Of a stretch of 64,000 nucleotides of DNA, positions 298 to 62,356 are shown piece after piece (within the stretch, counting starts at the first letter, position 1; each line of letters starts with the position of its first letter). The notes under the pieces were generated by a model, which was not told the DNA's origin, did no database searches, and saw nothing but the letters and a program-made list of their open reading frames with translations. Both the position numbers and the translations under genes were made by a program. The stretch is from Natronorubrum aibiense. Lineage in GTDB: Archaea; Halobacteriota; Halobacteria; Halobacteriales; Natrialbaceae. The stretch covers positions 1,798,001-1,862,000 of the forward strand of contig NZ_CP045488.1 of assembly GCF_009392895.1 (NCBI RefSeq), read 5' to 3'.

Positions 298-455
298 CTG
301 GCTGCCAGCGAAACTATCTTTGAACAGCGAGAGAATCCCGGCGTTTACGCCGGGCGTGAATCGCGTCACTCGACTACACAATCCACAGTCGATGGCAAGC
401 TGGATATTTAACGTGAATCCACACCACTAAGTTGGATTGTCTATATAGGCTATGT

Positions 456-1706
456 ATGGCGATTCAGGTCACTCGCACCTATGTTGGTTCCATTCAGAAT
501 CAGCGACAGGTCTGCGATGACCTGGATTTGCTCGGAGACTCCGCCTCGAAGATCTGGAACGTCGCACGCTGGACAGCCGACCGCATCTGGGATGAAATCG
601 GTGAGATTCCCGATGAAGGGACGCTCAAAGCGTACATGAAGAACCAAGCGTGCTGGAAAGACCTAAACGCACAATCCAGTCAGAAAGTCATCGAAGAACT
701 TTCTGACGCTTTCCAGTCATGGTTCGACCTGCGACACAAGTTTGACGAGGCGAATCCGCCCGGCTACCGTAAACACGGCGACACTCGACCCAAGAGTACG
801 GTCACGTTCAAAGCAGACGGCTTCAAACACGACCCCGAGAATAACCGAGTCAGACTCTCAAAGGGCAAGAACCTGAAAGAGAACTGGTCGGACTTCATCC
901 TTTGTGAGTACCAGACCCGGCCAGACGTTGACCTCACAGAAGTCAACAGCGTGCAGAACGTGCGCACCGTCTGGAATGGTGACGAGTGGGAACTACACCT
1001 CGTCTGCAAAGTCGAACTCGAAACCAACGATTCCGCAGGCGACGAAGTGGCAGGAATCGACCTCGGTATCAAGAACATTGCCACTGTCGCATTCCCCGGC
1101 GAATACGTCCTGTATCCCGGCAACTCGCTCAAACAGGACAAACACTACTTCACCCGAGTAGAGTACGACACGGAGGGTGAGAACGGTCCCTCAGAGAAGT
1201 CGATGTGGGCACGCCGGAAACTCGCTGATCGAGAGACACACTTCTACCACACGCTTACGGACGCCATCATCACGGAGTGTGTCGAACGCGGTGTTGGAAC
1301 GCTCGCGGTGAGCTGGCCCGAAGACGTGCGAGAGTCCGACTGGGGCAAGACCGGCAACAAGAAAATCCACACGTGGGCGTTCGACCGCATCTACCAGTAT
1401 CTCGAATACAAGGGCGAGATTCGTGGTGTCGAGGTGCTGAAAGAGAACGAGTGGGATACCTCGAAGATGTGTTCACGGTGTGGCGACGACACGAAGTCGA
1501 ACCGTGTCGAACGTGGTCTGTACGTCTGCTCGTCGTGTGAGTTGGTAGCCAACGCGGACTGCAACGGAGCGGAGAATATGCGCCAGAAGATAACTCCGAG
1601 TCCTCACGGTGAGGATAGGAGTAACGGCTGTGTGGCACAGCCATCGGTACACCTGTTCGACCGCGAGAGCGGGACGTTTCACACGAGAGAACAGGTCGTG
1701 TCGTAG
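456..1706 (+). CDS. tnpB: TnpB-family RNA-guided nuclease-like protein (copy A)
   Basis: 416 residues. The start is the ATG at 456 (MAIQVTRTYVG); an upstream TTG in frame is less likely. An N-terminal helical/WED-like region is followed by a split RuvC domain. RuvC-I is seen as AGIDLGIKNIA. A zinc ribbon has CSRC and CSSC pairs. RuvC-III is seen as NADCNGAENM. In the RuvC-II position, where TnpB and Cas12 normally have a Glu in E-D-L, the sequence reads LAVSWPEDVRE, so the Glu is not at its usual place. TnpB proteins use a reRNA (omega RNA) from the 3' end of their own element to cleave DNA and keep the element in the genome. About 90% identical to copy B. Confidence 0.9.
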   Translation: MAIQVTRTYVGSIQNQRQVCDDLDLLGDSASKIWNVARWTADRIWDEIGEIPDEGTLKAYMKNQACWKDLNAQSSQKVIEELSDAFQSWFDLRHKFDEANPPGYRKHGDTRPKSTVTFKADGFKHDPENNRVRLSKGKNLKENWSDFILCEYQTRPDVDLTEVNSVQNVRTVWNGDEWELHLVCKVELETNDSAGDEVAGIDLGIKNIATVAFPGEYVLYPGNSLKQDKHYFTRVEYDTEGENGPSEKSMWARRKLADRETHFYHTLTDAIITECVERGVGTLAVSWPEDVRESDWGKTGNKKIHTWAFDRIYQYLEYKGEIRGVEVLKENEWDTSKMCSRCGDDTKSNRVERGLYVCSSCELVANADCNGAENMRQKITPSPHGEDRSNGCVAQPSVHLFDRESGTFHTREQVVS

Positions 1707-7231: not shown

Positions 7232-7386
7232 GACGACGGGAAGCCGTTGCAGTCGCGAGACGGCACAGTGCTCGAATAGCTCTGTTCGAACGTTCGAGGC
7301 ACTATTTATTCGTTACTATCGGCTAATTCTATGAGATAACCTATTGAATGTTGGTATATTCACAAATATTAAACAGTATACGGTGA

Positions 7387-7698
7387 GTGAGTTTACTGAT
7401 GGTTGAGAGCACATCGTCACAGAACACAACGACACGGGCTGGGAGTCGCCACATTCGTGCCATTCCTCGTTGTCGCCTCCTTGCATCGACCGCCAGTGGT
7501 GTGACCAGGCTCTCGCTTGCGGGCAGTCTCGAATCGGCCGATTCGGTCATCGGCGCCAGCGAGGACGACGACGAACCAGTCACGGTTGGCTTACTCGCTC
7601 CCAAGCCGGACAGTAACTACACGTACTTCCTTCGAGTCGGACAGCTCTGTTTTCCGGGTCACGCGTATGCGTACACGAATCAAAAATTTGATTTTTGA
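7387..7698 (+). pseudogene. Remnant: duplicated 5' end of the solute-binding lipoprotein gene
   Basis: The translated frame (likely ATG 7399) aligns with the N-terminus of the intact gene at 7746. RCRLLASTASGVTRLSLAGS matches RRRLLKATTGVAAGISVSGC, and EPVTVGLLAPKPDSNY matches DPVTIGVLAPNPDSDY. After this (about 7625) the similarity stops and the frame closes at 7698. The Tat twin arginine is broken (RCR) and the lipobox Cys is Ser, so it cannot make a lipoprotein. The bases before the ATG also resemble those before the intact gene, so promoter and 5' end were duplicated together. Confidence 0.65.
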
Positions 7699-7699
7699 T
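7679..7699. promoter_or_regulatory. 9-bp inverted repeat before the binding-protein gene
   Basis: ATCAAAAAT, TTG, ATTTTTGAT: a perfect 9-base inverted repeat with a 3-base centre, ending 46 bases before ATG 7746. It is AT-rich in a GC-rich genome. It could be an operator, or a small terminator behind the upstream remnant; the position just upstream of a likely promoter favours an operator. Confidence 0.4.
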
Positions 7700-7745
7700 A
7701 TGTATCCACAAACACTAAGCAATCTAAGTCTAAAGCAGTGTGAAT

Positions 7746-9131
7746 ATGACCGATACCGAGCGATGGGAAACGGAGTTGGGAGCGACAGCGGAGCGGGCCG
7801 ATCGGGATGGGGCGCTGAACCGACGGCGACTGCTCAAAGCGACGACCGGTGTTGCGGCTGGCATCTCGGTTTCCGGCTGTCTCGATTCCTACGAAACGCT
7901 CGCCGGGAGCACCGACAGCGACGACGATGACCCGGTCACGATCGGCGTGCTGGCTCCGAACCCGGACAGCGACTACATCGGTCGGTCGATCGTTCGCGCG
8001 GCGGAAGTCGCCGTTACGGAACTCAACGACGACGGCGGGATCAACGGTCGGGACGTCGAGATGGCCGTCGGCGACACGAACGAGAGCCCGCTTGAGGCCC
8101 GTCGCCAGTACCAGCGACTCGTCCTCGAGGAAGGGGCCGACGTGACGGTCGGCGTCTTCACGAGCGAGGCGCTCATGAACATCGTCGACAACATCGCCGA
8201 ACAGGAGACGATCCACCTCACGTCCGGCGCAGCGACGACGGAAGTGAGTCGGCTGGTCAACGAGGAGTACGACCGGTACAAGTATCACTTCCGCGTCGGC
8301 CCGATCAACGACTACGACCTCGGTCGGACGCAGGTCGACTTCATGGACGACATGGCGTCGAAAATCGGGTGGGAGTCCGTCGCCCTCCTTGCCGAAGATT
8401 ATGCCTGGACTGAAGTGCCGTGGGACGTCTATCAGGAGCAGCTTGCAGAGACCGGCGTCGACATCGTGATGCAAGAACGGTATCCACCGGCGACGGACGA
8501 CTTCTCGGACATCTACGATCGCGTCGAAGCCGCCGGTGCCGACGTGGCGTTCATCACGGCTGCACACACCGGAAACGAGGCGTTGGCCGACTGGGCGGCC
8601 CCACAGCGTCCGTTCGCGTTCGGTGGCATTCACGTCCCGATGCAGCTGCCGGCGTACTACGAGCAGGCCCGTCATCCACAGACCGATGCACCGCTGGCCG
8701 AGTACGGTGTCACGTACGACAGCGCAACAGCACAGAGTACGACCACCTCGAAGACACAGGACTTCGTCAACCACTACCAGGAGATGTTCGATGGATCGAA
8801 TCCGGTCTACACCGGCTACCACACCTACGACGGAATCAAACTCTTCGCCGAGACGGCGACCGAGGTCGGAACCGTCGACTCTGACGACCTGATCCCGGCA
8901 CTCGAGGACGCCTCCTTTACCGGCACGGTCGGCACGCTCGAGTTCTACGGTCGAGATCACCAGGTCGAGGGCAAAGAGTACGGCCACACTCACGACATCG
9001 TCTACGGCGAGGATGCCCACCACCCGATTTACTCCCAGTGGCAGGCCGACGACGGCGGGGAGGGTGTCCAGGAAATCATCTGGCCAGAACGCGAGGCGAC
9101 GGCCGAGTACGCCGAACCCGACTGGCTCTGA
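7746..9131 (+). CDS. Tat lipoprotein, type-1 periplasmic solute-binding protein (LivJ/BasB-like)
   Basis: 461 residues from ATG 7746 (a GTG two codons earlier is in frame). The N-terminus has a twin-arginine signal (RRRLLKATTGVAAG) and a lipobox SVSGC, so it should be exported folded and lipid-anchored outside the cell. After an acidic linker comes a two-lobed type-1 binding fold starting DPVTIGVLAPNPDSDYIG, as in branched-chain amino acid, amide or urea binding proteins. No ABC permease or ATPase lies nearby; the divergent neighbour is a chemotaxis transducer. This arrangement matches BasB/BasT of Halobacterium, where the binding protein delivers ligand to the receptor. The ligand cannot be told from sequence. 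Confidence 0.88.
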   Translation: MTDTERWETELGATAERADRDGALNRRRLLKATTGVAAGISVSGCLDSYETLAGSTDSDDDDPVTIGVLAPNPDSDYIGRSIVRAAEVAVTELNDDGGINGRDVEMAVGDTNESPLEARRQYQRLVLEEGADVTVGVFTSEALMNIVDNIAEQETIHLTSGAATTEVSRLVNEEYDRYKYHFRVGPINDYDLGRTQVDFMDDMASKIGWESVALLAEDYAWTEVPWDVYQEQLAETGVDIVMQERYPPATDDFSDIYDRVEAAGADVAFITAAHTGNEALADWAAPQRPFAFGGIHVPMQLPAYYEQARHPQTDAPLAEYGVTYDSATAQSTTTSKTQDFVNHYQEMFDGSNPVYTGYHTYDGIKLFAETATEVGTVDSDDLIPALEDASFTGTVGTLEFYGRDHQVEGKEYGHTHDIVYGEDAHHPIYSQWQADDGGEGVQEIIWPEREATAEYAEPDWL

Positions 9132-11317: not shown

Positions 11318-11660
11318 ACGGTCGCTTACGGACAGCGGCGTAAAGAACGGTTCGGACAACAATGTAGGCACCGCCGATGACTCGAGACACGTGCTCGACC
11401 ATGGCTGCCGGTCGACACTCCGTCGCCGACTCTGTCAGTGTGCCGGTTCGCTTGCAACCACTACGACTATCTTTGAACAGCGAGAGAATCCCGGCGTTTA
11501 CGCCGTCATCAGAAATCGAAGATATCTGATTGCCCGTCAGACGTAGTCTGACGACCGGGCGTGAATCGCGTCACTCGACTACACAATCCACAGTCGATGG
11601 CAAGCTGGATATTTAACGTGAATCCACACCACTAAGTTGGATTGTCTATATAGGCTATGT

Positions 11661-12911
11661 ATGGCGATTCAGGTCACTCGCACCTATGTTGGTTCCATTC
11701 AGAACCGGCGACAGGTCTGCGATGACCTGGATTTGCTCGGAGACTCCGCCTCGAAGATCTGGAACGTCGCACGCTGGACAGCCGACCGCATCTGGGATGC
11801 AACCGGCGAGATTCCCGATGAAGGGACGCTCAAAGCGTACATGAAGAACCAAGCGTGCTGGAAAGACCTAAACGCACAATCCAGTCAGAAAGTCATCGAA
11901 GAACTTTCTGACGCTTTCCAGTCGTGGTTCGATCTACGACAGAAAGACGGCAAGGCGAATCCGCCAGGCTACCGCAAACACGGCGACACCCGACCCAAGA
12001 GTACGATTACGTTCAAAGCAGACGGCTTCAAACACGACCCCGAGAATAACCGAGTCAGACTCTCGAAAGGGTCGAACCTGAAAGAGAACTGGTCGGACTT
12101 CATCCTTTGTGAGTACCAGACCCGGCCAGACGTCGACCTCTCAGAAGTCAACAAGGTACAGAACGTTCGTACGGTCTGGAACGGCGACGAATGGGAGCTG
12201 CACTTCGTCTGTAAAGTCGATCTCGAAACCGCGGATTCAGCAGGTGACGGCGTAGCAGGCATCGACCTCGGCATCACGAACATTGCCACGGTTGCCTTCC
12301 CGAACGAGTACGTCCTGTACCCCGGCAACTCGCTCAAGCAGGACAAGCACTACTTCACCCGAGCTGAGTACGATACTGAAGGTGAGAACGGCCCATCGGA
12401 GAAGTCGATGTGGGCACGGAGAAAGCTCGCTGACCGTGAGACACAGTTCTACCACGTTCTCACAGACGCCATCATCACGGAATGTGTCGAACGCGGTGTT
12501 GGAACGCTCGCGGTGAGTTGGCCTGAAGATGTGCGTAAGTATGATTGGGGCAAGACCGGGAACAAGAAGTTGCATTCGTGGGCATTCGACCGCATCTACC
12601 AGTACCTCGAATACAAAGGCGAAATACGTGGCGTCGAGGTGCTAAAGGAGAACGAGTGGGACACTTCGAAGACCTGCTCGCACTGTGGCGACGACACGAA
12701 GTCAAACCGGGTCGAACGTGGCCTGTACGTTTGTTCGTCGTGTGAGTTGGTAGCAAACGCTGATTGTAATGGGGCGGAGAATATGCGCCAGAAGATAACT
12801 CCGAGTCCTCACGGTGAGGATAGGAGTAACGGCTGTGTGGCACAGCCATCGGTACACCTGTTCGACCGCGAGAGCGGGACGTTTCACACGAGAGAACAGG
12901 TCGTGTCGTAG
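11661..12911 (+). CDS. tnpB: TnpB-family RNA-guided nuclease-like protein (copy B)
   Basis: 416 residues, start ATG 11661 (MAIQVTRTYVG). Same architecture as copy A: RuvC-I AGIDLGITNIA, zinc ribbon CSHC and CSSC, RuvC-III NADCNGAENM. The RuvC-II site again reads LAVSWPEDVRK without the standard Glu before D-L. Differences from copy A are concentrated in the middle of the gene and are largely synonymous, while both ends are nearly or fully identical, so the reading frame has been kept under selection or the ends have been homogenised. The protein probably acts with the RNA from its own 3' end. Confidence 0.9.
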   Translation: MAIQVTRTYVGSIQNRRQVCDDLDLLGDSASKIWNVARWTADRIWDATGEIPDEGTLKAYMKNQACWKDLNAQSSQKVIEELSDAFQSWFDLRQKDGKANPPGYRKHGDTRPKSTITFKADGFKHDPENNRVRLSKGSNLKENWSDFILCEYQTRPDVDLSEVNKVQNVRTVWNGDEWELHFVCKVDLETADSAGDGVAGIDLGITNIATVAFPNEYVLYPGNSLKQDKHYFTRAEYDTEGENGPSEKSMWARRKLADRETQFYHVLTDAIITECVERGVGTLAVSWPEDVRKYDWGKTGNKKLHSWAFDRIYQYLEYKGEIRGVEVLKENEWDTSKTCSHCGDDTKSNRVERGLYVCSSCELVANADCNGAENMRQKITPSPHGEDRSNGCVAQPSVHLFDRESGTFHTREQVVS

Positions 12912-55793: not shown

Positions 55794-57176
55794 ATGGAAG
55801 ACACCTCGAAATACCTCATTCACGCGGACGTCACGGCTGACGGGGTCGTCGAGCGCAGCGACGTCGTCGGTGCCATCTTCGGGCAGACCGAAGGCTTACT
55901 CGGTGACGAACTCGATCTGCGCGACCTGCGTCAGTCACAGAAAGTCGGTCGTATCGACGTCGAAATAACGAGCACCGGCGGCCAGTCACACGGCCACCTC
56001 ACCATCGCAACCGGCCTCGACAAGGTTGAAACCGCGACACTCGCGGCCTCCCTCGAGACGATCAGCCGAGTCGGCCCCTGTCGGGCCGACCTCGAGGTCA
56101 CCGAGATCGAAGACGTCCGAGCAGCAAAGCGAAAGGAGGTGGTCGAACGCGCAAAGGAACTGCTTCGTACCGGCTTCGACGACAGCGTGATGACCTCCGA
56201 GGAGATCCTCGCGGAGGTTCGCCAACACGTTCGCGTCGAGGACATCACCGAATACGAAGGGCTGCCGGCCGGCCCTCGGGTGACCGACAGCGATGCGATC
56301 ATCGTCGTCGAAGGTCGCTCGGACGTTCTCACGCTGTTGAAATACGGCGTCAAAAACGCGATCGCGGTCGAAGGCACCAACGTCCCCGACGCGGTGGCCG
56401 AACTCACCCGCCACCGGACAGTCACCGCCTTCCTCGACGGCGACCGCGGCGGCGACCTCATCTTCGAAGAACTCTCGCAGGTCGGCGATGTCGATTACGT
56501 CGCGTTCGCACCAGCTGGCACCTCCGTCGAGGATCTGGACCACCACCAGCTGTTTGCAGCCCTCCGAAACAAAGTCCCCTACGAGACGGTCTCGGAACTG
56601 AACGAGCCTCGAGAAGCCGTCGCCGCGACCGACGGCAGTGCAACGCCGGCACCGGCACCGGGAACCGGTGATTCCGATGGGGCCACCGCCGTAACACCCG
56701 AGCGTGCCGGCGAGCCCACGCAATCGACGGCGTCCGCAGTCGACATGTCCGTGTCCGACAGCACCGATGTCGAGTGCGGAACCGACGTCACGGATGCGGC
56801 GACGCCGTCGCCGACGGCTCCTGACGAGCAGTTCGAAGCCGAGCCATCGACCTCAGCCGACCCCGAAACCGTCTACGGCCATGCTGCGGTCGTCATCCGA
56901 AGCCAGACCGGCCGCGTTCGATTTCTCGACGCCGACGACAACACCCTTGAGGAGACCGATGCGAGCGACGCCTACGATGTTCTCGAGGACCTCGAGCCTG
57001 CGCCGTCGACGGTCGTGCTCGACGACATTCTCGGCCAGCAACTGCTCGATCTGGCGGCCGACCGCGGCGTCGGCCGGATCATCGCACAGTCGCTCGGGCA
57101 GTTCACCAAACGACCGACTGCGGTCCGCATTCACGCGATCGACGACGTCGCCGAAGAAGCGCCCGAGACGGAGTGA
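55794..57176 (+). CDS. dnaG: Archaeal DnaG primase-like protein
   Basis: 460 residues. The N-terminal helical domain (MEDTSKYLIHADVTADGVVERSDVVGA) and Toprim domain (acidic motifs VVEGRSDVLTL and FLDGDRGGD, about 175-260) match archaeal DnaG. About 130 residues in the middle are low-complexity Ser/Thr/Ala/Pro (about 280-370), and a conserved C-terminal domain (IRSQTGRVRFLDADDNTLEET) ends the protein. In archaea DnaG associates with the exosome for RNA decay and has primase activity in vitro. It sits next to orc1/cdc6 and its ORB repeats, forming a replication-linked block. Confidence 0.94.
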   Translation: MEDTSKYLIHADVTADGVVERSDVVGAIFGQTEGLLGDELDLRDLRQSQKVGRIDVEITSTGGQSHGHLTIATGLDKVETATLAASLETISRVGPCRADLEVTEIEDVRAAKRKEVVERAKELLRTGFDDSVMTSEEILAEVRQHVRVEDITEYEGLPAGPRVTDSDAIIVVEGRSDVLTLLKYGVKNAIAVEGTNVPDAVAELTRHRTVTAFLDGDRGGDLIFEELSQVGDVDYVAFAPAGTSVEDLDHHQLFAALRNKVPYETVSELNEPREAVAATDGSATPAPAPGTGDSDGATAVTPERAGEPTQSTASAVDMSVSDSTDVECGTDVTDAATPSPTAPDEQFEAEPSTSADPETVYGHAAVVIRSQTGRVRFLDADDNTLEETDASDAYDVLEDLEPAPSTVVLDDILGQQLLDLAADRGVGRIIAQSLGQFTKRPTAVRIHAIDDVAEEAPETE

Positions 57177-57256: not shown

Positions 57257-57469
57257 CACCCCCTACGTTTCCGACGTCTTCGCCTTCCCGTCGCCGGCTG
57301 TTCTCGTCTCTGCACGTTTGGTCTTGGGGTGTCCTCATCGACGTCGCGTCCACATCGGGGCACCCCATGTTTCCGACGTTACTTCGCTCATCCCCCCCGG
57401 ATTTCCGTCGTTTTCGACGGACCCCACGTTTCCGACGTTTCCCGTTTCGCCCTGCGTTTCCGTCGTTCG
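57257..57469 (+). repeat. Five ORB-like repeats between dnaG and orc1/cdc6
   Basis: Copies at 57257-57278, 57361-57386, 57392-57415, 57421-57441 and 57450-57469, all in the plus orientation. The core is CCCCACGTTTCCGACGT; variants have TTTCCGTCGT. The C-run at the left corresponds to the G-string of known haloarchaeal origin recognition boxes. They fill the 310-base space between the dnaG and orc1 stop codons; nothing else was seen there. Confidence 0.7.
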
Positions 57470-57486: not shown

Positions 57487-58719
57487 TTATTCGCTCGCCC
57501 AGTCTTGCATCCACGCGTCCTCGAGGATCGTTTCGCGGACGACGTGTGGGTCTTCGATGAGGCGGTTCTGCAGGTGGATGCCGCCGGCGCTTCCCTTGTT
57601 GATCTTCTCGATTTCGACAACGCCGAGAAACGCCTGTTCTTTCAGGATGTCGCGAAAGCGGCGAACCGAAAGTACGTCCATCTCGAGGTGATCACAGATC
57701 CGTTCGTACTGGTCGTACACGCGACTCGTGAGGAACGCGTCGTCGTCGGCAGTGACGCTGAGTTCGGTCAGCGCGAGTAGTGCGGCTTTCGCCTGCGTGG
57801 GGGCGCCGTTGACGAGTTCGCGAAAGCGGTCCTTTTCGGCGTGTTGCTGGGCCTGTCGGACGTGTTTTTCCTGGACGGTCTCGGCACCGTCCTCGTAGGC
57901 AACCTCGCCGGCGTGTCGGAGGATATCGATCGCCTTGCGCGCATCGCCGTGTTCTTGGGCGGCGAAGGCGGCGGACAGTGGGATCACCTCGTCGGAGAGG
58001 ACGCCGTCCCGGAAGGCGTCTTCCCGATTGACCATGATCTCGCGGAGCTGGTTCGCGTCGTAGGGTTTGAAGAACAGTTCCTTGTGCTGGAAGCTACTCC
58101 GGACCCGTTCGTTTAGCTTGTCGATGTACTGGATCTTGTTACTGATCGCGATGACACCGATGCTGCAGTCGATCTTTCCTGCCTCCTCGGCGCGCGAGAG
58201 CTTCATCAACACGCTGTCGTCGTTCATCAGGTCGATCTCGTCTAAGATGATGATCACGGAGTCGAACTGGGCGTCGAGTACCTTCCAGAGGAGTTTGTAG
58301 TACTTCGACGTGCTGAGTCCGGTGTGGGGGACCGAGATATCGGTGACTGCTTCGTCGTTGAGTTTCGCCGCGAGCGAGGACACTGCCTGTGTCTCTGTGT
58401 TATCCTCGGCACAATCGATGTACGCCGTCCCGATATCGACGCCCGACTCGGCTGCGTTGCGAGCGCGTTGACTGACGTGTCTCGAGACCAGTGACTTTCC
58501 CGCCCCGGTTTTGCCGTAGATCATCACGTTTTCCGGGGAATAGCCGTGAACAGCGCCGTTGAGCCGTTTGGCCAGTTTCGCGATTTCCTCATCTCGTCCG
58601 ACGATCCGATCGGCTTCCGGAACGTGGCCGATCTTCAGGAGGTCTTTGTTCGAGAAGATCCGGTGGCCGGACTCGAAGAGCGGATCGTCGACAGAACTGG
58701 ATGAGGGGTCGGGCGTCAT
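57487..58719 (-). CDS. Orc1/Cdc6 replication initiator
   Basis: 410 residues from ATG 58719 (MTPDPSSSSVDDPLFESGHR); a longer frame to 58983 reads through the ORB repeats and is rejected. AAA+ motifs: Walker A YGKTGAGKSLV, Walker B IIILDEIDLM, sensor-1 AISNKIQYID, sensor-2 region HGDARKAIDILRHAG. The C-terminal winged helix (about 320-410, LTSRVYDQYERICDHLEMD) binds ORBs. It initiates replication at the nearby origin. ORB-like repeats lie on both sides of the gene. Confidence 0.96.
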   Translation of the reverse strand: MTPDPSSSSVDDPLFESGHRIFSNKDLLKIGHVPEADRIVGRDEEIAKLAKRLNGAVHGYSPENVMIYGKTGAGKSLVSRHVSQRARNAAESGVDIGTAYIDCAEDNTETQAVSSLAAKLNDEAVTDISVPHTGLSTSKYYKLLWKVLDAQFDSVIIILDEIDLMNDDSVLMKLSRAEEAGKIDCSIGVIAISNKIQYIDKLNERVRSSFQHKELFFKPYDANQLREIMVNREDAFRDGVLSDEVIPLSAAFAAQEHGDARKAIDILRHAGEVAYEDGAETVQEKHVRQAQQHAEKDRFRELVNGAPTQAKAALLALTELSVTADDDAFLTSRVYDQYERICDHLEMDVLSVRRFRDILKEQAFLGVVEIEKINKGSAGGIHLQNRLIEDPHVVRETILEDAWMQDWASE

Positions 58720-58769: not shown

Positions 58770-59011
58770 TACCCCATGTTTCCGACGTATAAACGCTGTA
58801 TTCGGCGGGTAAGAAACGTGTATGTCGATGATGGGATTGTTGATATGATATCCACGTTTCCGACGTTGCTCGACGAATCGGCCGACAGCGGCGGGGTCGA
58901 ACGATGACATTGCTGACCCACCCACCCCACGTTTCCGACGTATCGAGATGAAGTGAGGGGTGGGGAGCGGCTGATGGTGTCACCCACCCCCCGCATTTCC
59001 GTCGTATCTCG
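58770..59011 (+). repeat. Four ORB-like repeats upstream of orc1/cdc6
   Basis: Copies at 58770-58795, 58851-58872, 58921-58947 and 58981-59011, plus orientation. The consensus is CCCCACGTTTCCGACGTAT; the last two have longer C-runs (CCCACCCC). They lie in the 342 bases before orc1 and, with the inverted copy at 60810-60840, frame the supposed unwinding region. Confidence 0.72.
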
Positions 59012-59059
59012 CTGGAGAGCGAGGAGCCAACGACGTCACCAAAACAATCGGCCTACAGA

Positions 59060-59250
59060 TTGACATCCTCCACGCCGTAAACGACGTGGAATCCCGACCG
59101 ACGTTGGGATATTAGGGTTTACAGTCAGCGACCTGTTCTCGCGGGGCGAAACGGCCCTCGCTACAATCGAACAGATGGACTGAAGGCTGTGCCAACCAGC
59201 CGTTACTCCTATCCTTCGCAGGACTCGAAGTTACTTTTCGCCGAATATTC
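59060..59250 (-). ncRNA. Putative omega/reRNA of tnpB copy C
   Basis: By position it matches the conserved 3' segment of copies A and B (end of tnpB plus right-end hairpin CCACGTCG-TTTA-CGGCGTGG). The 20 bases beyond the element, 59059 down to 59040, would be the guide and are part of the origin region. The upstream boundary is not defined. Confidence 0.35.
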
Positions 59251-60371
59251 TCCGCACCATTCACATCCGCGTTCGCAACCGTATCGCACTCCTTGCAGAC
59301 GTACAACCCGCGTTCAACACGCTGGTTGCCGTCTTTCCTCCCACAGGCGGAACACGTCTTGGAGGTATCGCGTTCGGATTCAACGGTTACGTCGATCCCT
59401 TCGGCTTCCGTTTTGTAGTCGAGCATCGACGTGAAGCGGTCAAACGCCCATCCGTGAAGATCAAGGTTGCCGTGCGTCCCCCAGTTACGAGATTCGCCGT
59501 CCTTGTCGTCGCGGATACCGCCCAAGTCGCCTATGACGATTGTTCCAACACCCCTCTCGACACACTCCGAAACGATGTGTTTCGAGAGTGTATGCAAGAA
59601 GTGGGTTCTGCGCTCCGTGCGTTTCCGATCAAGACGACACCGCTCATTGGATCGGCTATCGTCACACTTCGCCTTCTTCCGTCCGAAGTAGTATTCGTCC
59701 TCTTTCAGCGCGTTGCCGGGAAAGAGGATGGATTCGCCGCCGAACGATAGCGCGGCGACGTTCGAGATGCCGAGGTCGATCCCGGCAGTCTCGTTGCCCG
59801 GTGGGTCGGGATCAATCACCTTTCGACAGACGAAGTGAAGCCGCCACTCGTCGTACTTGTGAACGGCCCGAACCTGCTGGATGTCCCACTCGGAGAGGTC
59901 CACGTCGGGGCGTAGCTCGTACTCGCACAGCACGAAGTCCGAACGGTGTTCCTTGAGGTTGCGCCCTTTCGAGAGGCGAACACGGGTGAACTGTGCATCA
60001 TGCTTGAAGCCAGCCGCCTTGAACGACACTGTAGAACGTGGGTGTGAATCGCCGCGTTTGCGGTAGCCGGGCGGTCGGGCACGGCTATCGCCGTTCCGAC
60101 GCTTTGCGAACCAGCCGTTGAACGCTTCAGCGAGTTCTTCGAGAACGCGCTGACTGGATTGCGAATGAAGATCCGTATAGCGTTCGTGGCCTTTGAGTTC
60201 GGATTTGAGTTCCCCGTCATCGGGGAGCTCGCCCGTTTCGTCCCACTGTGCTTGTGCGTAGTAGCGACCGACGTTCCAGAGTTTCGACGCGGCCCGTCCG
60301 AGTTGATCGAGGTCATCACTCACTTGCCGTGAGTTAGTGATCGACGCCTCGAATGTTCGGTGGGTTCGCAT
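59112..60371 (-). CDS. tnpB: TnpB-family RNA-guided nuclease-like protein (copy C)
   Basis: 419 residues from ATG 60371 (MRTHRTFEASITNSRQ); 25 codons upstream in frame read through the left end. RuvC-I is AGIDLGISNVAALSF, the zinc ribbon has CSACG and CKEC, and RuvC-III is NADVNGAENIRRK. RuvC-II reads IVIGDLGGIRDDKDG, with Gly in the place of the usual Glu. It is clearly diverged from copies A and B but of the same clade (shared YRKRGD, ERGLYVC, SNGWLAQPSVHLFD). Its putative guide RNA would end in the origin sequence at about 59059-59040. Confidence 0.9.
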   Translation of the reverse strand: MRTHRTFEASITNSRQVSDDLDQLGRAASKLWNVGRYYAQAQWDETGELPDDGELKSELKGHERYTDLHSQSSQRVLEELAEAFNGWFAKRRNGDSRARPPGYRKRGDSHPRSTVSFKAAGFKHDAQFTRVRLSKGRNLKEHRSDFVLCEYELRPDVDLSEWDIQQVRAVHKYDEWRLHFVCRKVIDPDPPGNETAGIDLGISNVAALSFGGESILFPGNALKEDEYYFGRKKAKCDDSRSNERCRLDRKRTERRTHFLHTLSKHIVSECVERGVGTIVIGDLGGIRDDKDGESRNWGTHGNLDLHGWAFDRFTSMLDYKTEAEGIDVTVESERDTSKTCSACGRKDGNQRVERGLYVCKECDTVANADVNGAENIRRKVTSSPAKDRSNGWLAQPSVHLFDCSEGRFAPREQVADCKP

Positions 60372-60525
60372 CGATTTCTGGCACCATAACCGGTTATGGA
60401 CGCCGAGAACATAGTCGTACCGATCCAGTATAGAGTATCCGGCCATGCAACAGGCTGTGGATTGTTACAGCAAGTGACGGCGCGTATCCACGCCCTAAAG
60501 GACGTGGTATTGCGCCTGTTCAGCG

Positions 60526-60660
60526 TATAATCGAACCACACAGGAGATAATTGACTGATTAGTCGTACGAACTATGCGTGCGGAGCCATTGTTGTAACGG
60601 ATCGAAAATAGATAGACTAAAAAGAAGATGCTGATAATAGTCCAGTGGTTGTACTTCGTG
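60526..60660. other. AT-rich candidate DNA-unwinding element
   Basis: About 135 bases with clearly higher AT than the surroundings (for example GATCGAAAATAGATAGACTA), lying between the tnpB element and the inverted ORB. No open frame of note. This is the most AT-rich non-coding stretch near orc1. Confidence 0.5.
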
Positions 60661-60664
60661 TCCT

Positions 60665-60691
60665 GATAGAACGAGGAGACTTCGTTCTATC
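60665..60691. repeat. 10-bp stem-loop beside the AT-rich element
   Basis: GATAGAACGA, a 7-base loop GGAGACT, then TCGTTCTATC: perfect 10-base stem. It lies between the AT-rich stretch and the inverted ORB. It may be part of the origin or a remnant end of another mobile element. The rest of 60692-61009 holds only the ORB at 60810-60840. Confidence 0.45.
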
Positions 60692-60809
60692 GGTCGAACC
60701 GACGGCGTTTACAGTGTCGCTGTGATCGAGTTCAGTTTGCCGTAGAACGACTCTGCACTCGAGTTCGCGCTTTCGAACGATTCCTTCACGTGGACCCCCC
60801 ACCCGCGGT

Positions 60810-60840
60810 CGAATTACGACGGAAACGTGGGGTGGGTGTC
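60810..60840 (-). repeat. Inverted ORB-like repeat
   Basis: On the minus strand it reads CACCCCACGTTTCCGTCGTA, matching the copies upstream of orc1 including the CCCACCCC run. It faces the four plus-oriented copies across the AT-rich stretch and the tnpB element. Confidence 0.7.
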
Positions 60841-61009: not shown

Positions 61010-62356
61010 CTATCCGAGGACGGCAAACGACAGTACCAACAGCGCACACACGATCGCCCCGGACAACGTTGCGAGGAAGTTCACGCTCTGGTTGCCGAGC
61101 AGGCGTCCCTCGAGGGTCGCACCGAGGAGACTATCGACGGTCATGCCGACGACGCCGGCGGCGACGATGATCCCCGCGCCAACGGCCGTGACCTCCGGGA
61201 AGAGCCCATAGGAGATCCCGGCGACGACGGCTGCGCCCACGATTCCAGCGACCTCGCCCTGCCAGGTCACGCCGCCGTCGGTGCCGGGTTCGACGGGTTC
61301 GAGGGTCGTAATCAGCCGCGGAGTGTCGAAGACGCTGCCGATCTCACTCGAGAGCGTGTCACTCATGGCGGTCGCAACCGAGCCGGCGAACGCGAAGAGA
61401 AACAGGCTGGGATCGTGGCCGCCGGGCAACAGCGCGGCGGAACTCGCCGCGTAGCCGAGGACGGCGACGATCGCGACGGCGGCGTTGCCGAGCACGTTGC
61501 CGCTGCCGCGGGCGCCGTTGTTGTCCTCGGCAACGCCCATCGTCGCTTTCTGTTCGTAGCGGAACTTCGAGGAGAGACCGCCGATGGCAAAAAACGAGAT
61601 GAGGACGACGAACCAGCCGTAGCCGCCGAGGACGATCGTCAACAGCCCGAGCAGAATACCGGTGAGCATGCCTGCGATCGAAGCGGTCTCGAGTGCGTAC
61701 GAGACGTAGCCGAGTGCGATCGTGACGACGAGCGCGGCGACGATCTCGGGCAGGGCGTGGGTCGGCTCGAGTTCCGCGAGGAGCCAACACAGGAGTCCAA
61801 CAGCTAACATGACGATTGGATCGTCATTTGAATACAGGACGTCACGGAGCAAGGCGGCGAGCAACGCACCGCTCGCACCGAGAAAGACCATGAGCGGCAG
61901 CGTCGACGTGATCGACTCGAAGGTGCCAGCGCCGTCGGTAATCGTGACCGTCGCAGCCTGTCCGACGATGGCAGCGGCGGCCGCGACCAGACAGAAGACG
62001 GTGACGATGACAACGTCGCTGTCCGTCCGCTGGCGGGTGAACTGCGCTGCGACGTTGCCGTATCCGATGAGGAGGACAGTCCCGACGAAGACGGCGAGCG
62101 TCATCGACGTTGTCACCGCGATCAGGCCGAGGGCGACGGTCGCGAGGACGAACGTGATGAGCCCGTAGAGCCGGCCGTCCTCGTAGTCGCTCGGATAGGC
62201 GAGGAGATCGAAGAGAGGGCCGTCAGTTACCGCGAAGGCCCCAAGGATCACCACGGCTGCGAGTGCGGCCCCAACCTCAGGGCCACCGAGGGGGACGGCG
62301 AGTGCAAACGTACAGATGATCGCAAAGACGCTTGCTCGCCGGACGGGTGCTGTCAC
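61010..62356 (-). CDS. DUF92 family membrane protein (VTE6-like polyprenyl/phytyl phosphate kinase family)
   Basis: 448 residues with GTG start at 62356. About 12 membrane helices. The C-terminal half is DUF92: GGLSSKFRYEQKATMGVAEDN, SGNVLGNAAVAIVAVLGYAAS, FAGSVATAMSDTLSSEIGSVF and VTWQGEVAGIVGAAVVAG. Plant VTE6 of this family phosphorylates phytyl phosphate. The N-terminal half is an extra haloarchaeal membrane block. Its neighbours are two cis-prenyltransferase-like genes, so a role in polyprenol or dolichol phosphate metabolism fits; this is inference. Confidence 0.88.
   Translation of the reverse strand: MTAPVRRASVFAIICTFALAVPLGGPEVGAALAAVVILGAFAVTDGPLFDLLAYPSDYEDGRLYGLITFVLATVALGLIAVTTSMTLAVFVGTVLLIGYGNVAAQFTRQRTDSDVVIVTVFCLVAAAAAIVGQAATVTITDGAGTFESITSTLPLMVFLGASGALLAALLRDVLYSNDDPIVMLAVGLLCWLLAELEPTHALPEIVAALVVTIALGYVSYALETASIAGMLTGILLGLLTIVLGGYGWFVVLISFFAIGGLSSKFRYEQKATMGVAEDNNGARGSGNVLGNAAVAIVAVLGYAASSAALLPGGHDPSLFLFAFAGSVATAMSDTLSSEIGSVFDTPRLITTLEPVEPGTDGGVTWQGEVAGIVGAAVVAGISYGLFPEVTAVGAGIIVAAGVVGMTVDSLLGATLEGRLLGNQSVNFLATLSGAIVCALLVLSFAVLG

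What the first reader, a model, noticed from the sequence alone, without database searches (positions are those of the whole stretch)
58770..60840. A tnpB element sits inside the replication origin
Four ORB repeats upstream of orc1/cdc6 and one inverted ORB at 60810-60840 frame an AT-rich stretch, the usual plan of a haloarchaeal origin, but a 1.47-kb tnpB element (59060-60525) separates the left ORBs from the AT-rich core. Its guide RNA would match the origin sequence at the insertion site, so TnpB could be aimed at any uninterrupted origin copy. Whether the origin still fires is open.
Basis: partly seen in the sequence, partly recalled or inferred. Interest (0 to 1): 0.8.

Follow-up and report, generated by a model that had tools for sequence, protein, structure and literature searches.

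The report
Flipped archaeal replication origin with transposon
A salt-loving archaeon carries a plasmid-type DNA replication start site in its chromosome whose central part has been turned back to front at its own initiator-binding repeats and is also split by a small mobile element, so it is probably a weakened spare origin and a natural test of which parts of an origin matter.

Summary
An orc1/cdc6 gene (57487-58719) is preceded by four forward ORBs and one inverted ORB (60815-60838), and a 1.47-kb tnpB element lies between the ORBs and the AT-rich core. Comparison changes the reading in three ways. (1) The initiator is Orc4, a patchy, mostly plasmid-borne type; the orc4-origin module sits between dnaG and DUF92 in 4 of 10 Natronorubrum genomes. 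(2) "Four plus one" ORBs is not the normal plan: 41 of 44 relatives have three forward then two inverted ORBs. Here the segment between ORB3 and ORB5 is inverted, with the crossover inside about 19 shared ORB bases. Of 64 distinct origins that could be called, 61 have the ancestral core orientation and 3 are inverted; the tree needs two independent flips. (3) The element is an ordinary IS200/IS605-type tnpB element (TTAT target, sot0042 RNA end). Its guide matches only this species' own empty site, not relatives' origins, and its TnpB lacks the canonical RuvC-II glutamate, like its haloarchaeal relatives. Most likely this is a captured plasmid origin, flipped by ORB-ORB recombination, split by the element, and now weak or dormant. 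Firing was not testable.

The parts
55794..57176 (+). dnaG-type primase gene, chromosomal neighbour on one side of the captured origin module
   Evidence: NCBIfam PRK04031 DnaG 572.5 bits; dnaG-DUF92 synteny in 10 of 10 genus genomes
57267..57466 (+). array of five ORB cores downstream of orc4 (placed like the inhibitory oriC2D region of Haloarcula hispanica; function here inferred)
   Evidence: conserved array in most relatives; oriC2D from passages of PMC3936714
57487..58719 (-). orc4, Orc1/Cdc6 initiator of the mostly plasmid-borne Orc4 type
   Evidence: 86-91% identical genes, many named orc4, on plasmids
58771..58790 (+). ORB1, unflipped
58849..58868 (+). ORB2, unflipped
58919..58942 (+). 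hybrid ORB at the left inversion breakpoint: outer flank of ORB3, inner side of ORB5
   Evidence: ORB by ORB comparison with relatives
58984..59005 (+). ORB4, moved by the inversion to the orc4 side
59040..59059 (-). predicted guide of the element's RNA: flank just outside the right end, TCTGTAGGCCGATTGTTTTG
   Evidence: no comparable match in 70 relatives' origins
59060..60526 (-). IS200/IS605-type (IS1341-like, tnpB only) element body
   Evidence: 18 of 18 left ends begin TTAT, 12 full right ends finish TCAA
59069..59236 (-). sot0042 / omega-RNA scaffold overlapping the 3' end of tnpB
   Evidence: Rfam RF02656, 107.4 bits, gathering 88; 6 of 30 pairs with both-sided changes
59112..60371 (-). 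tnpB (419 aa from the probable start; the open frame reaches 60446)
60527..60530 (-). TTAT target / presumed TAM
60531..60814 (.). AT-rich origin core, inverted relative to 61 of 63 callable relatives
60665..60691 (.). conserved inverted repeat in the core (GATAGAACG...CGTTCTATC); its arms vary together between species
   Evidence: core alignment
60815..60838 (-). hybrid ORB at the right breakpoint: inner side of ORB3, outer flank of ORB5
61010..62356 (-). DUF92 membrane protein gene, chromosomal neighbour on the other side
   Evidence: Pfam DUF92 196.7 bits

Best explanation
Shown: an orc4-origin module of a type found mostly on haloarchaeal plasmids lies between dnaG and DUF92 in this genome and three related Natronorubrum species, and is absent from that spot in six others. 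In this genome only (of those four) the segment ORB3-core-ORB4-ORB5 is inverted, with the crossover inside the roughly 19 bases that ORB3 and ORB5 share. A tnpB element of the IS200/IS605 superfamily sits at a TTAT between ORB4 and the core. Inferred: the flip came from recombination between the two inverted ORBs. It left ORB1, ORB2, the orc4 upstream region and the ORB-core-ORB arrangement usable, so the flip alone is probably near neutral. The element, placed by single-strand transposition driven in trans by a TnpA, pushes ORB4 and ORB5 about 1.5 kb from the unwinding core, so this origin is probably weak or dormant while other origins replicate the chromosome. If the TnpB is active, its guide can cut only element-free copies of this same origin on sister chromosomes, which would restore the element by homologous repair.
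For: Synteny. Patchy Orc4 distribution. ORB layout 3+2 in 41 of 44 relatives against 4+1 here. Core orientation: 61 ancestral, 3 inverted, 7 not callable of 71. Element-free segment scores against N. sulfidifaciens: 28 as is, 117 reverse-complemented, shuffled maximum 29; the outer flank shows the reverse pattern (91 against 16). ORB-by-ORB identity across both breakpoints. Two independent flips on the tree. Element ends, related copies and 571-bp derivatives. Y1 transposases in the genome. omega-RNA scaffold. Precedent: oriC3-cdc6D of Har. hispanica, interrupted by a putative transposase and nonfunctional (passages of PMC4441112); both ORBs and their G-strings needed in oriC1 (passages of PMC3936714).
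Against: Firing was not measured. ORB4/ORB5 may be dispensable, or the initiator may act over distance by looping, so the origin may still fire. The sampled GC skew shows no turn at this locus but is weak everywhere, so it says little. The order of inversion and insertion is unknown. TnpB activity is uncertain because the RuvC-II Glu is absent. Orc4 itself is intact, which suggests the module is not simply decaying.
Confidence: 0.7

Rival explanations
1. The origin still fires. ORB1, ORB2, the left hybrid ORB and ORB4 on one side and the right hybrid ORB on the other still flank the core; the added 1.47 kb is tolerated, and the core works in either orientation.
For: Orc4 is intact and 95-97% identical to its Natronorubrum orthologues at this locus; the two other inverted origins (L061, L095) also keep Orc4 genes without stops (G147 and G029); the core's conserved blocks are kept in the window.
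Against: The published precedent of a transposase inside an origin was nonfunctional (PMC4441112 passages); truncation of either ORB impaired oriC1 (PMC3936714 passages); no GC-skew turn here.
Confidence: 0.3
2. Inversion and insertion are linked: TnpB cuts at the element-free site on a sister chromosome provoked repair that recombined the inverted ORBs and flipped the core.
For: Both events lie in the same roughly 1.9-kb segment of one genome; ISDra2 TnpB makes guide- and TAM-dependent breaks and is proposed to restore the element from a sister copy (PMC8612924 passages).
Against: The other flip, in L061/L095, shows no such element between its ORBs; breakpoints are at ORBs, not at the cut site; the RuvC-II Glu is missing.
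Confidence: 0.12
3. The inversion is an assembly error.
For: The segment is bounded by 24-nt inverted repeats.
Against: A 24-nt repeat is far shorter than a sequencing read; single-base ORB markers switch consistently at both breakpoints; a separate lineage shows a flip as well.
Confidence: 0.04
4. TnpB here has been recruited as an origin regulator (guide-directed binding without cutting) rather than being a passenger.
For: RuvC-II Glu is replaced, and the element sits in an origin.
Against: The substitution is shared by all haloarchaeal TnpB relatives aligned, an invariant Glu at residue 358 may replace it, and other 90%-identical copies sit at unrelated sites; a chromosome carrying the element has no intact TTAT-flanked target at this site.
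Confidence: 0.04

Closest known systems
oriC3-cdc6D of Haloarcula hispanica (Wu et al. 2014, PMC4441112; passages read)
   Same: A chromosomal, variably present origin beside its own cdc6 gene, interrupted by a transposase-carrying element that relatives lack
   Different: A different cdc6 gene (orthology with Orc4 not tested); the word 'inversion' has 0 occurrences in that text
Orc4 origins of haloarchaeal plasmids (Halobacterium pNRC200 and others)
   Same: 86-91% identical initiator; same ORB spacing (60/138/213 nt from the orc4 start codon) and core in the relatives compared
   Different: Mostly on plasmid-sized replicons, 3+2 ORBs and an uninverted, uninterrupted core; the window's copy is chromosomal, inverted and interrupted
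oriC2-cdc6E / oriC2D of Haloarcula hispanica (PMC3936714; passages read)
   Same: ORB-rich array downstream of the initiator gene
   Different: Orthology of Orc4 with Cdc6E was not tested; no regulation shown here
IS200/IS605-superfamily tnpB-only (IS1341-type) elements with sot/omega RNA, as in Halobacterium (PMC12558985; abstract and passages read)
   Same: tnpB plus a sense-overlapping 3' RNA, hairpins near the ends, no tnpA inside
   Different: Nothing essential; only its position in an origin is unusual

Membership tests
Haloarchaeal orc/cdc6-adjacent replication origin (Orc4 type) | Adjacent Orc1/Cdc6 initiator gene | tested here: met
Haloarchaeal orc/cdc6-adjacent replication origin (Orc4 type) | ORB repeats with a G-string, in inverted orientation, flanking an AT-rich stretch | tested here: met
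Haloarchaeal orc/cdc6-adjacent replication origin (Orc4 type) | Uninterrupted 3+2 ORB arrangement usual in the Orc4 family | tested here: not met
   4+1 and interrupted by 1.47 kb. I therefore call it an altered copy of such an origin; initiator, ORBs and core are those of the family
Haloarchaeal orc/cdc6-adjacent replication origin (Orc4 type) | Initiates replication in vivo | not testable with these tools
   needs marker-frequency or plasmid assay; GC skew uninformative
IS200/IS605-type tnpB element | TnpB protein | tested here: met
   NF040570, PF01385, PF07282
IS200/IS605-type tnpB element | Conserved ends at a fixed tetranucleotide | tested here: met
   18 of 18 left ends with TTAT; 12 full right ends with TCAA
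IS200/IS605-type tnpB element | No target duplication, shown by an empty site | tested here: inconclusive
   no empty site was found for another copy, L131; relatives' origins are too diverged at the insertion point to show it
IS200/IS605-type tnpB element | omega/sot RNA at the right end | tested here: met
   (RF02656)
Active RNA-guided TnpB nuclease | RuvC Asp-Glu-Asp triad | tested here: inconclusive
   RuvC-I Asp and RuvC-III Asp present; RuvC-II Glu is Gly; Glu358 is invariant in every aligned row that covers it. E278A kills ISDra2 TnpB (PMC8612924 passages)
Invertible DNA switch with a dedicated recombinase | Recombinase gene beside the invertible segment | tested here: not met
   of the neighbouring genes scanned (HTH protein, dnaG, orc4, tnpB, DUF92, two prenyltransferases) none is a site-specific recombinase
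Invertible DNA switch with a dedicated recombinase | Both orientations in one population | not testable with these tools
   one assembly only

The most novel reading that the evidence does not exclude
The ORB-flanked core of haloarchaeal origins is an invertible module: inverted ORBs serve as recombination sites, so the core flips from time to time (two independent flips in this family), possibly in both orientations within one polyploid cell, and an IS200/IS605-type element in the core, with a guide aimed at the element-free origin, biases or fixes one state.
Probability: 0.1. Interest if true: 0.8.

Novelty: new variant of a known kind. Interest (0 to 1): 0.52.

Why it matters
It is a natural experiment on archaeal origin architecture. 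Two independent lineages have the core backwards relative to the initiator gene, so core polarity seems not to be essential, while 61 of 63 callable relatives keep it one way. It shows initiator-binding repeats acting as inversion breakpoints, and a transposon of a single-strand-DNA family sitting where DNA is unwound. It gives a directly testable set: the same origin with and without the element, and in both orientations.

Tried and rejected
Rejected: that this is the main oriC (patchy Orc4, plasmid type); that the guide targets origins of other species (best 6 mismatches in 70 loci, equal to shuffles; in the own genome only its own right-end junction with 2 mismatches and one site with 3); that the module decayed in place in the six relatives without it (no ORB in their dnaG-DUF92 gaps).

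Led nowhere: AlphaFold model of TnpB from three sequences (mean pLDDT 40.4), not used; TnpB relatives in viral contigs (none); empty site of another copy (none in the nine other genus genomes); sampled GC skew, 43 stretches of 20 kb (no turn at the locus; extremes near 0.93 and 2.03 Mb); a core model trained only on Halorubrum-like origins scored Natronorubrum cores too weakly to call (71 loci: 54 +, 1 -, 16 undecided, the window among the undecided), so a broader one was made; a first ORB pattern had the wrong leading base and gave 0 hits, corrected; an attempt to identify oriC1 among the other orc loci by repeats was not conclusive, so flips in other origin families were not tested.

Dropped from counts: L154 (too little upstream sequence) and L098 (same as the window); L070, L073, L173, L175-L178 not callable. 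Fifty of the 61 'ancestral' calls trained the model they were scored with; of 20 loci held out, 13 were callable (10 ancestral, 3 inverted). The first core model, trained on all 44 relatives, gave the same three inverted loci.

Literature: searches for origin inversion listed no paper that, by its listing, describes core inversion at ORBs; only open-licence papers were searchable. The idea that some TnpB lineages carry a rearranged catalytic site is recalled (Altae-Tran et al. 2023); that paper is not held.

Full report
WHAT IS THERE. The window (G000:C1:1798001-1862000, a 4.35-Mb genome in four contigs) holds an Orc1/Cdc6 gene at 57487-58719(-). A strict ORB core pattern occurs 11 times in 64 kb against 0.69 in shuffles; ten of the 11 flank this gene: five downstream, four forward upstream and one inverted. 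Between the fourth forward ORB and the AT-rich stretch lies a tnpB element.

THE INITIATOR AND ITS PLACE. The protein is 86-91% identical to plasmid genes many of which are named orc4; of 144 plasmid records matched, 34 are at 80% identity or more, for example Halobacterium pNRC200. At E <= 1e-180 it is present in 26 of 125 genomes of the family and 56 of 392 sampled from the order, and at E <= 1e-150 in 7 of 10 of the genus. The genome has 15 orc matches, about 14 loci. In all ten genus genomes dnaG and DUF92 are neighbours apart from this module; in four (the window, and the loci of N. bangense, N. thiooxidans and N. sulfidifaciens) the orc4 module lies between them. In the other six the gap is 143-252 bp (four) or 1.0-1.6 kb (two), with no ORB in any. 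I read this as capture of a plasmid-type origin by the chromosome of one sub-lineage.

THE CORE IS BACKWARDS. In 41 of 44 relatives with upstream sequence the layout is three forward ORBs, usually about 60, 138 and 213 nt from the orc4 start, then about 250-470 nt of core, then at least two inverted ORBs; the exceptions are L063, L065 and L067. The window alone has four forward (60, 138, 213, 277) and one inverted (2098, or about 625 without the element). BLAST against N. sulfidifaciens, N. bangense and N. thiooxidans shows orc4 and ORB1-2 and, on the other side, DUF92 colinear, but the segment between reversed (seen directly, where the core hits of N. sulfidifaciens and N. bangense are on the opposite strand). 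The element-free segment scores 28 as is and 117 reverse-complemented against N. sulfidifaciens (100 shuffles: maximum 29). Eight relatives tested all favour the reverse complement, while the ORB1-2 flank favours the forward orientation in the three relatives tested.

WHERE IT BROKE. Each ORB has a recognisable inner side. In the window the ORB at 213 has the outer flank of ORB3 and the inner side of ORB5; the ORB at 277 is ORB4; the ORB at 2098 has the inner side of ORB3 and the outer flank of ORB5 (sequences). The exchange therefore lies in the shared CACCCACCCCACGTTTCCG, inside the ORB. ORB1, ORB2 and the roughly 200 nt upstream of orc4 kept their place.

HOW OFTEN. A core profile trained on 50 origins and applied to 71 distinct loci (70 relatives and the window) ancestral, 3 inverted (window, L061 and L095) and 7 not callable. 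The three Natronorubrum relatives at this locus, the window, L061 and L095 were held out of training. The window scores 57.7 bits on the reverse strand and nothing on the forward strand; its sister N. sulfidifaciens scores 68.8 bits on the forward strand and nothing on the reverse. On the orc4 tree L061 and L095 are sisters (99/99) and the window is sister to N. sulfidifaciens (100/95); two changes are forced by well-supported branches (the bootstrap had not fully settled). The breakpoints of the L061/L095 flip were not resolved. The core keeps a co-varying inverted repeat (window 60665-60691), an ACGAAGT block and an ACTTTAATCTATGTGTT-like block in the Natronorubrum and most other lineages shown, turned round in the window.

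THE ELEMENT. Eighteen of 18 left ends listed begin TTAT, and 12 full right ends finish TCAA, with unrelated flanks (one further right-end row, in L129, is a partial hairpin match). Two copies about 90% identical, one broken copy and more distant ones are in the genome. Eight of nine left-end-only loci examined belong to a roughly 571-bp derivative. The element has no tnpA; six Y1 transposase matches exist in the genome. The right end matches Rfam sot0042 at 107.4 bits, gathering 88. Element body 59060-60526, TTAT 60527-60530, guide from 59059 leftward on the minus strand. None of the 44 relatives measured has more than 470 nt between its last forward and first inverted ORB, so the insertion is specific to this genome in that set.

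IS THE GUIDE AIMED AT ORIGINS? Only at this one. TTAT+16 nt finds nothing better than 6 mismatches in 70 relatives' origins, as in shuffles. In the own genome, with up to 3 mismatches, only the element's own junction and one 3-mismatch site appear. TnpB has the RuvC-I and RuvC-III Asp, but Gly where solved relatives have the RuvC-II Glu. All aligned haloarchaeal relatives covering the site share the loss (Gly, or another residue in the two other window TnpBs), and all rows covering residue 358 have Glu there, a candidate replacement (inference). Since E278A inactivates ISDra2 TnpB (PMC8612924, passages), activity must be tested.

WHAT IT LIKELY DOES. Published precedents: a transposase-interrupted, nonfunctional oriC3-cdc6D in Har. 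hispanica (PMC4441112, passages); need for both flanking ORBs in oriC1 (PMC3936714, passages); a recently acquired origin that stays dormant in Haloferax mediterranei (PMC4595724, passages). I infer that the flip itself is tolerated and that the element weakens the origin. IS200/IS605 elements insert into single-stranded DNA at forks (PMC5371812, passages); an unwinding origin core would be a plausible target, but this is conjecture. GC skew gives no support for a strong origin here and is weak overall.

VERDICT. A real and unusual locus: a captured plasmid-type origin, inverted at its own ORBs and split by an ordinary tnpB element. The inversion, with a second independent case, is the more informative part.

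Noticed in passing
window 432-1706 (+) and 11637-12911 (+): Two further tnpB genes, 54% identical to the origin's TnpB, with 'SWPEDV' at the RuvC-II position and the same invariant Glu before TSK.
   Followed up: partly
G000 loci L121-L127, L129: About 571-bp non-autonomous derivatives sharing the element's left end and TTAT target, five of them 98-99% identical over the whole length, suggesting recent mobilisation in trans.
   Followed up: partly
L063 (Halorussus amylolyticus) 7282-8211: A tnpB gene directly 3' of orc4, where no downstream ORB array is found: a second contact between such an element and this origin family.
   Followed up: no
G000 C2:2449-3663 and C2:3891-4810: Another orc gene with a tnpB match about 230 bp away on a plasmid-sized contig.
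   Followed up: no
window 57267-57466: Conserved array of ORBs downstream of orc4, present in most relatives (typically four at fixed spacing) and placed like the inhibitory oriC2D region.
   Followed up: partly
L039 (N. bangense), between core and ORB4; flanks of element copies L130 and L132: A similar small palindromic sequence (AGTAACAACTGAA...CAGT) occurs in the N. bangense origin and beside two element copies, perhaps a small mobile repeat.
   Followed up: no
G215 C4:38250-39479 and C4:159532-160761: Two equally scoring orc4 copies on one 167-kb replicon; their upstream regions fall in one group of identical 380-nt sequence.
   Followed up: no
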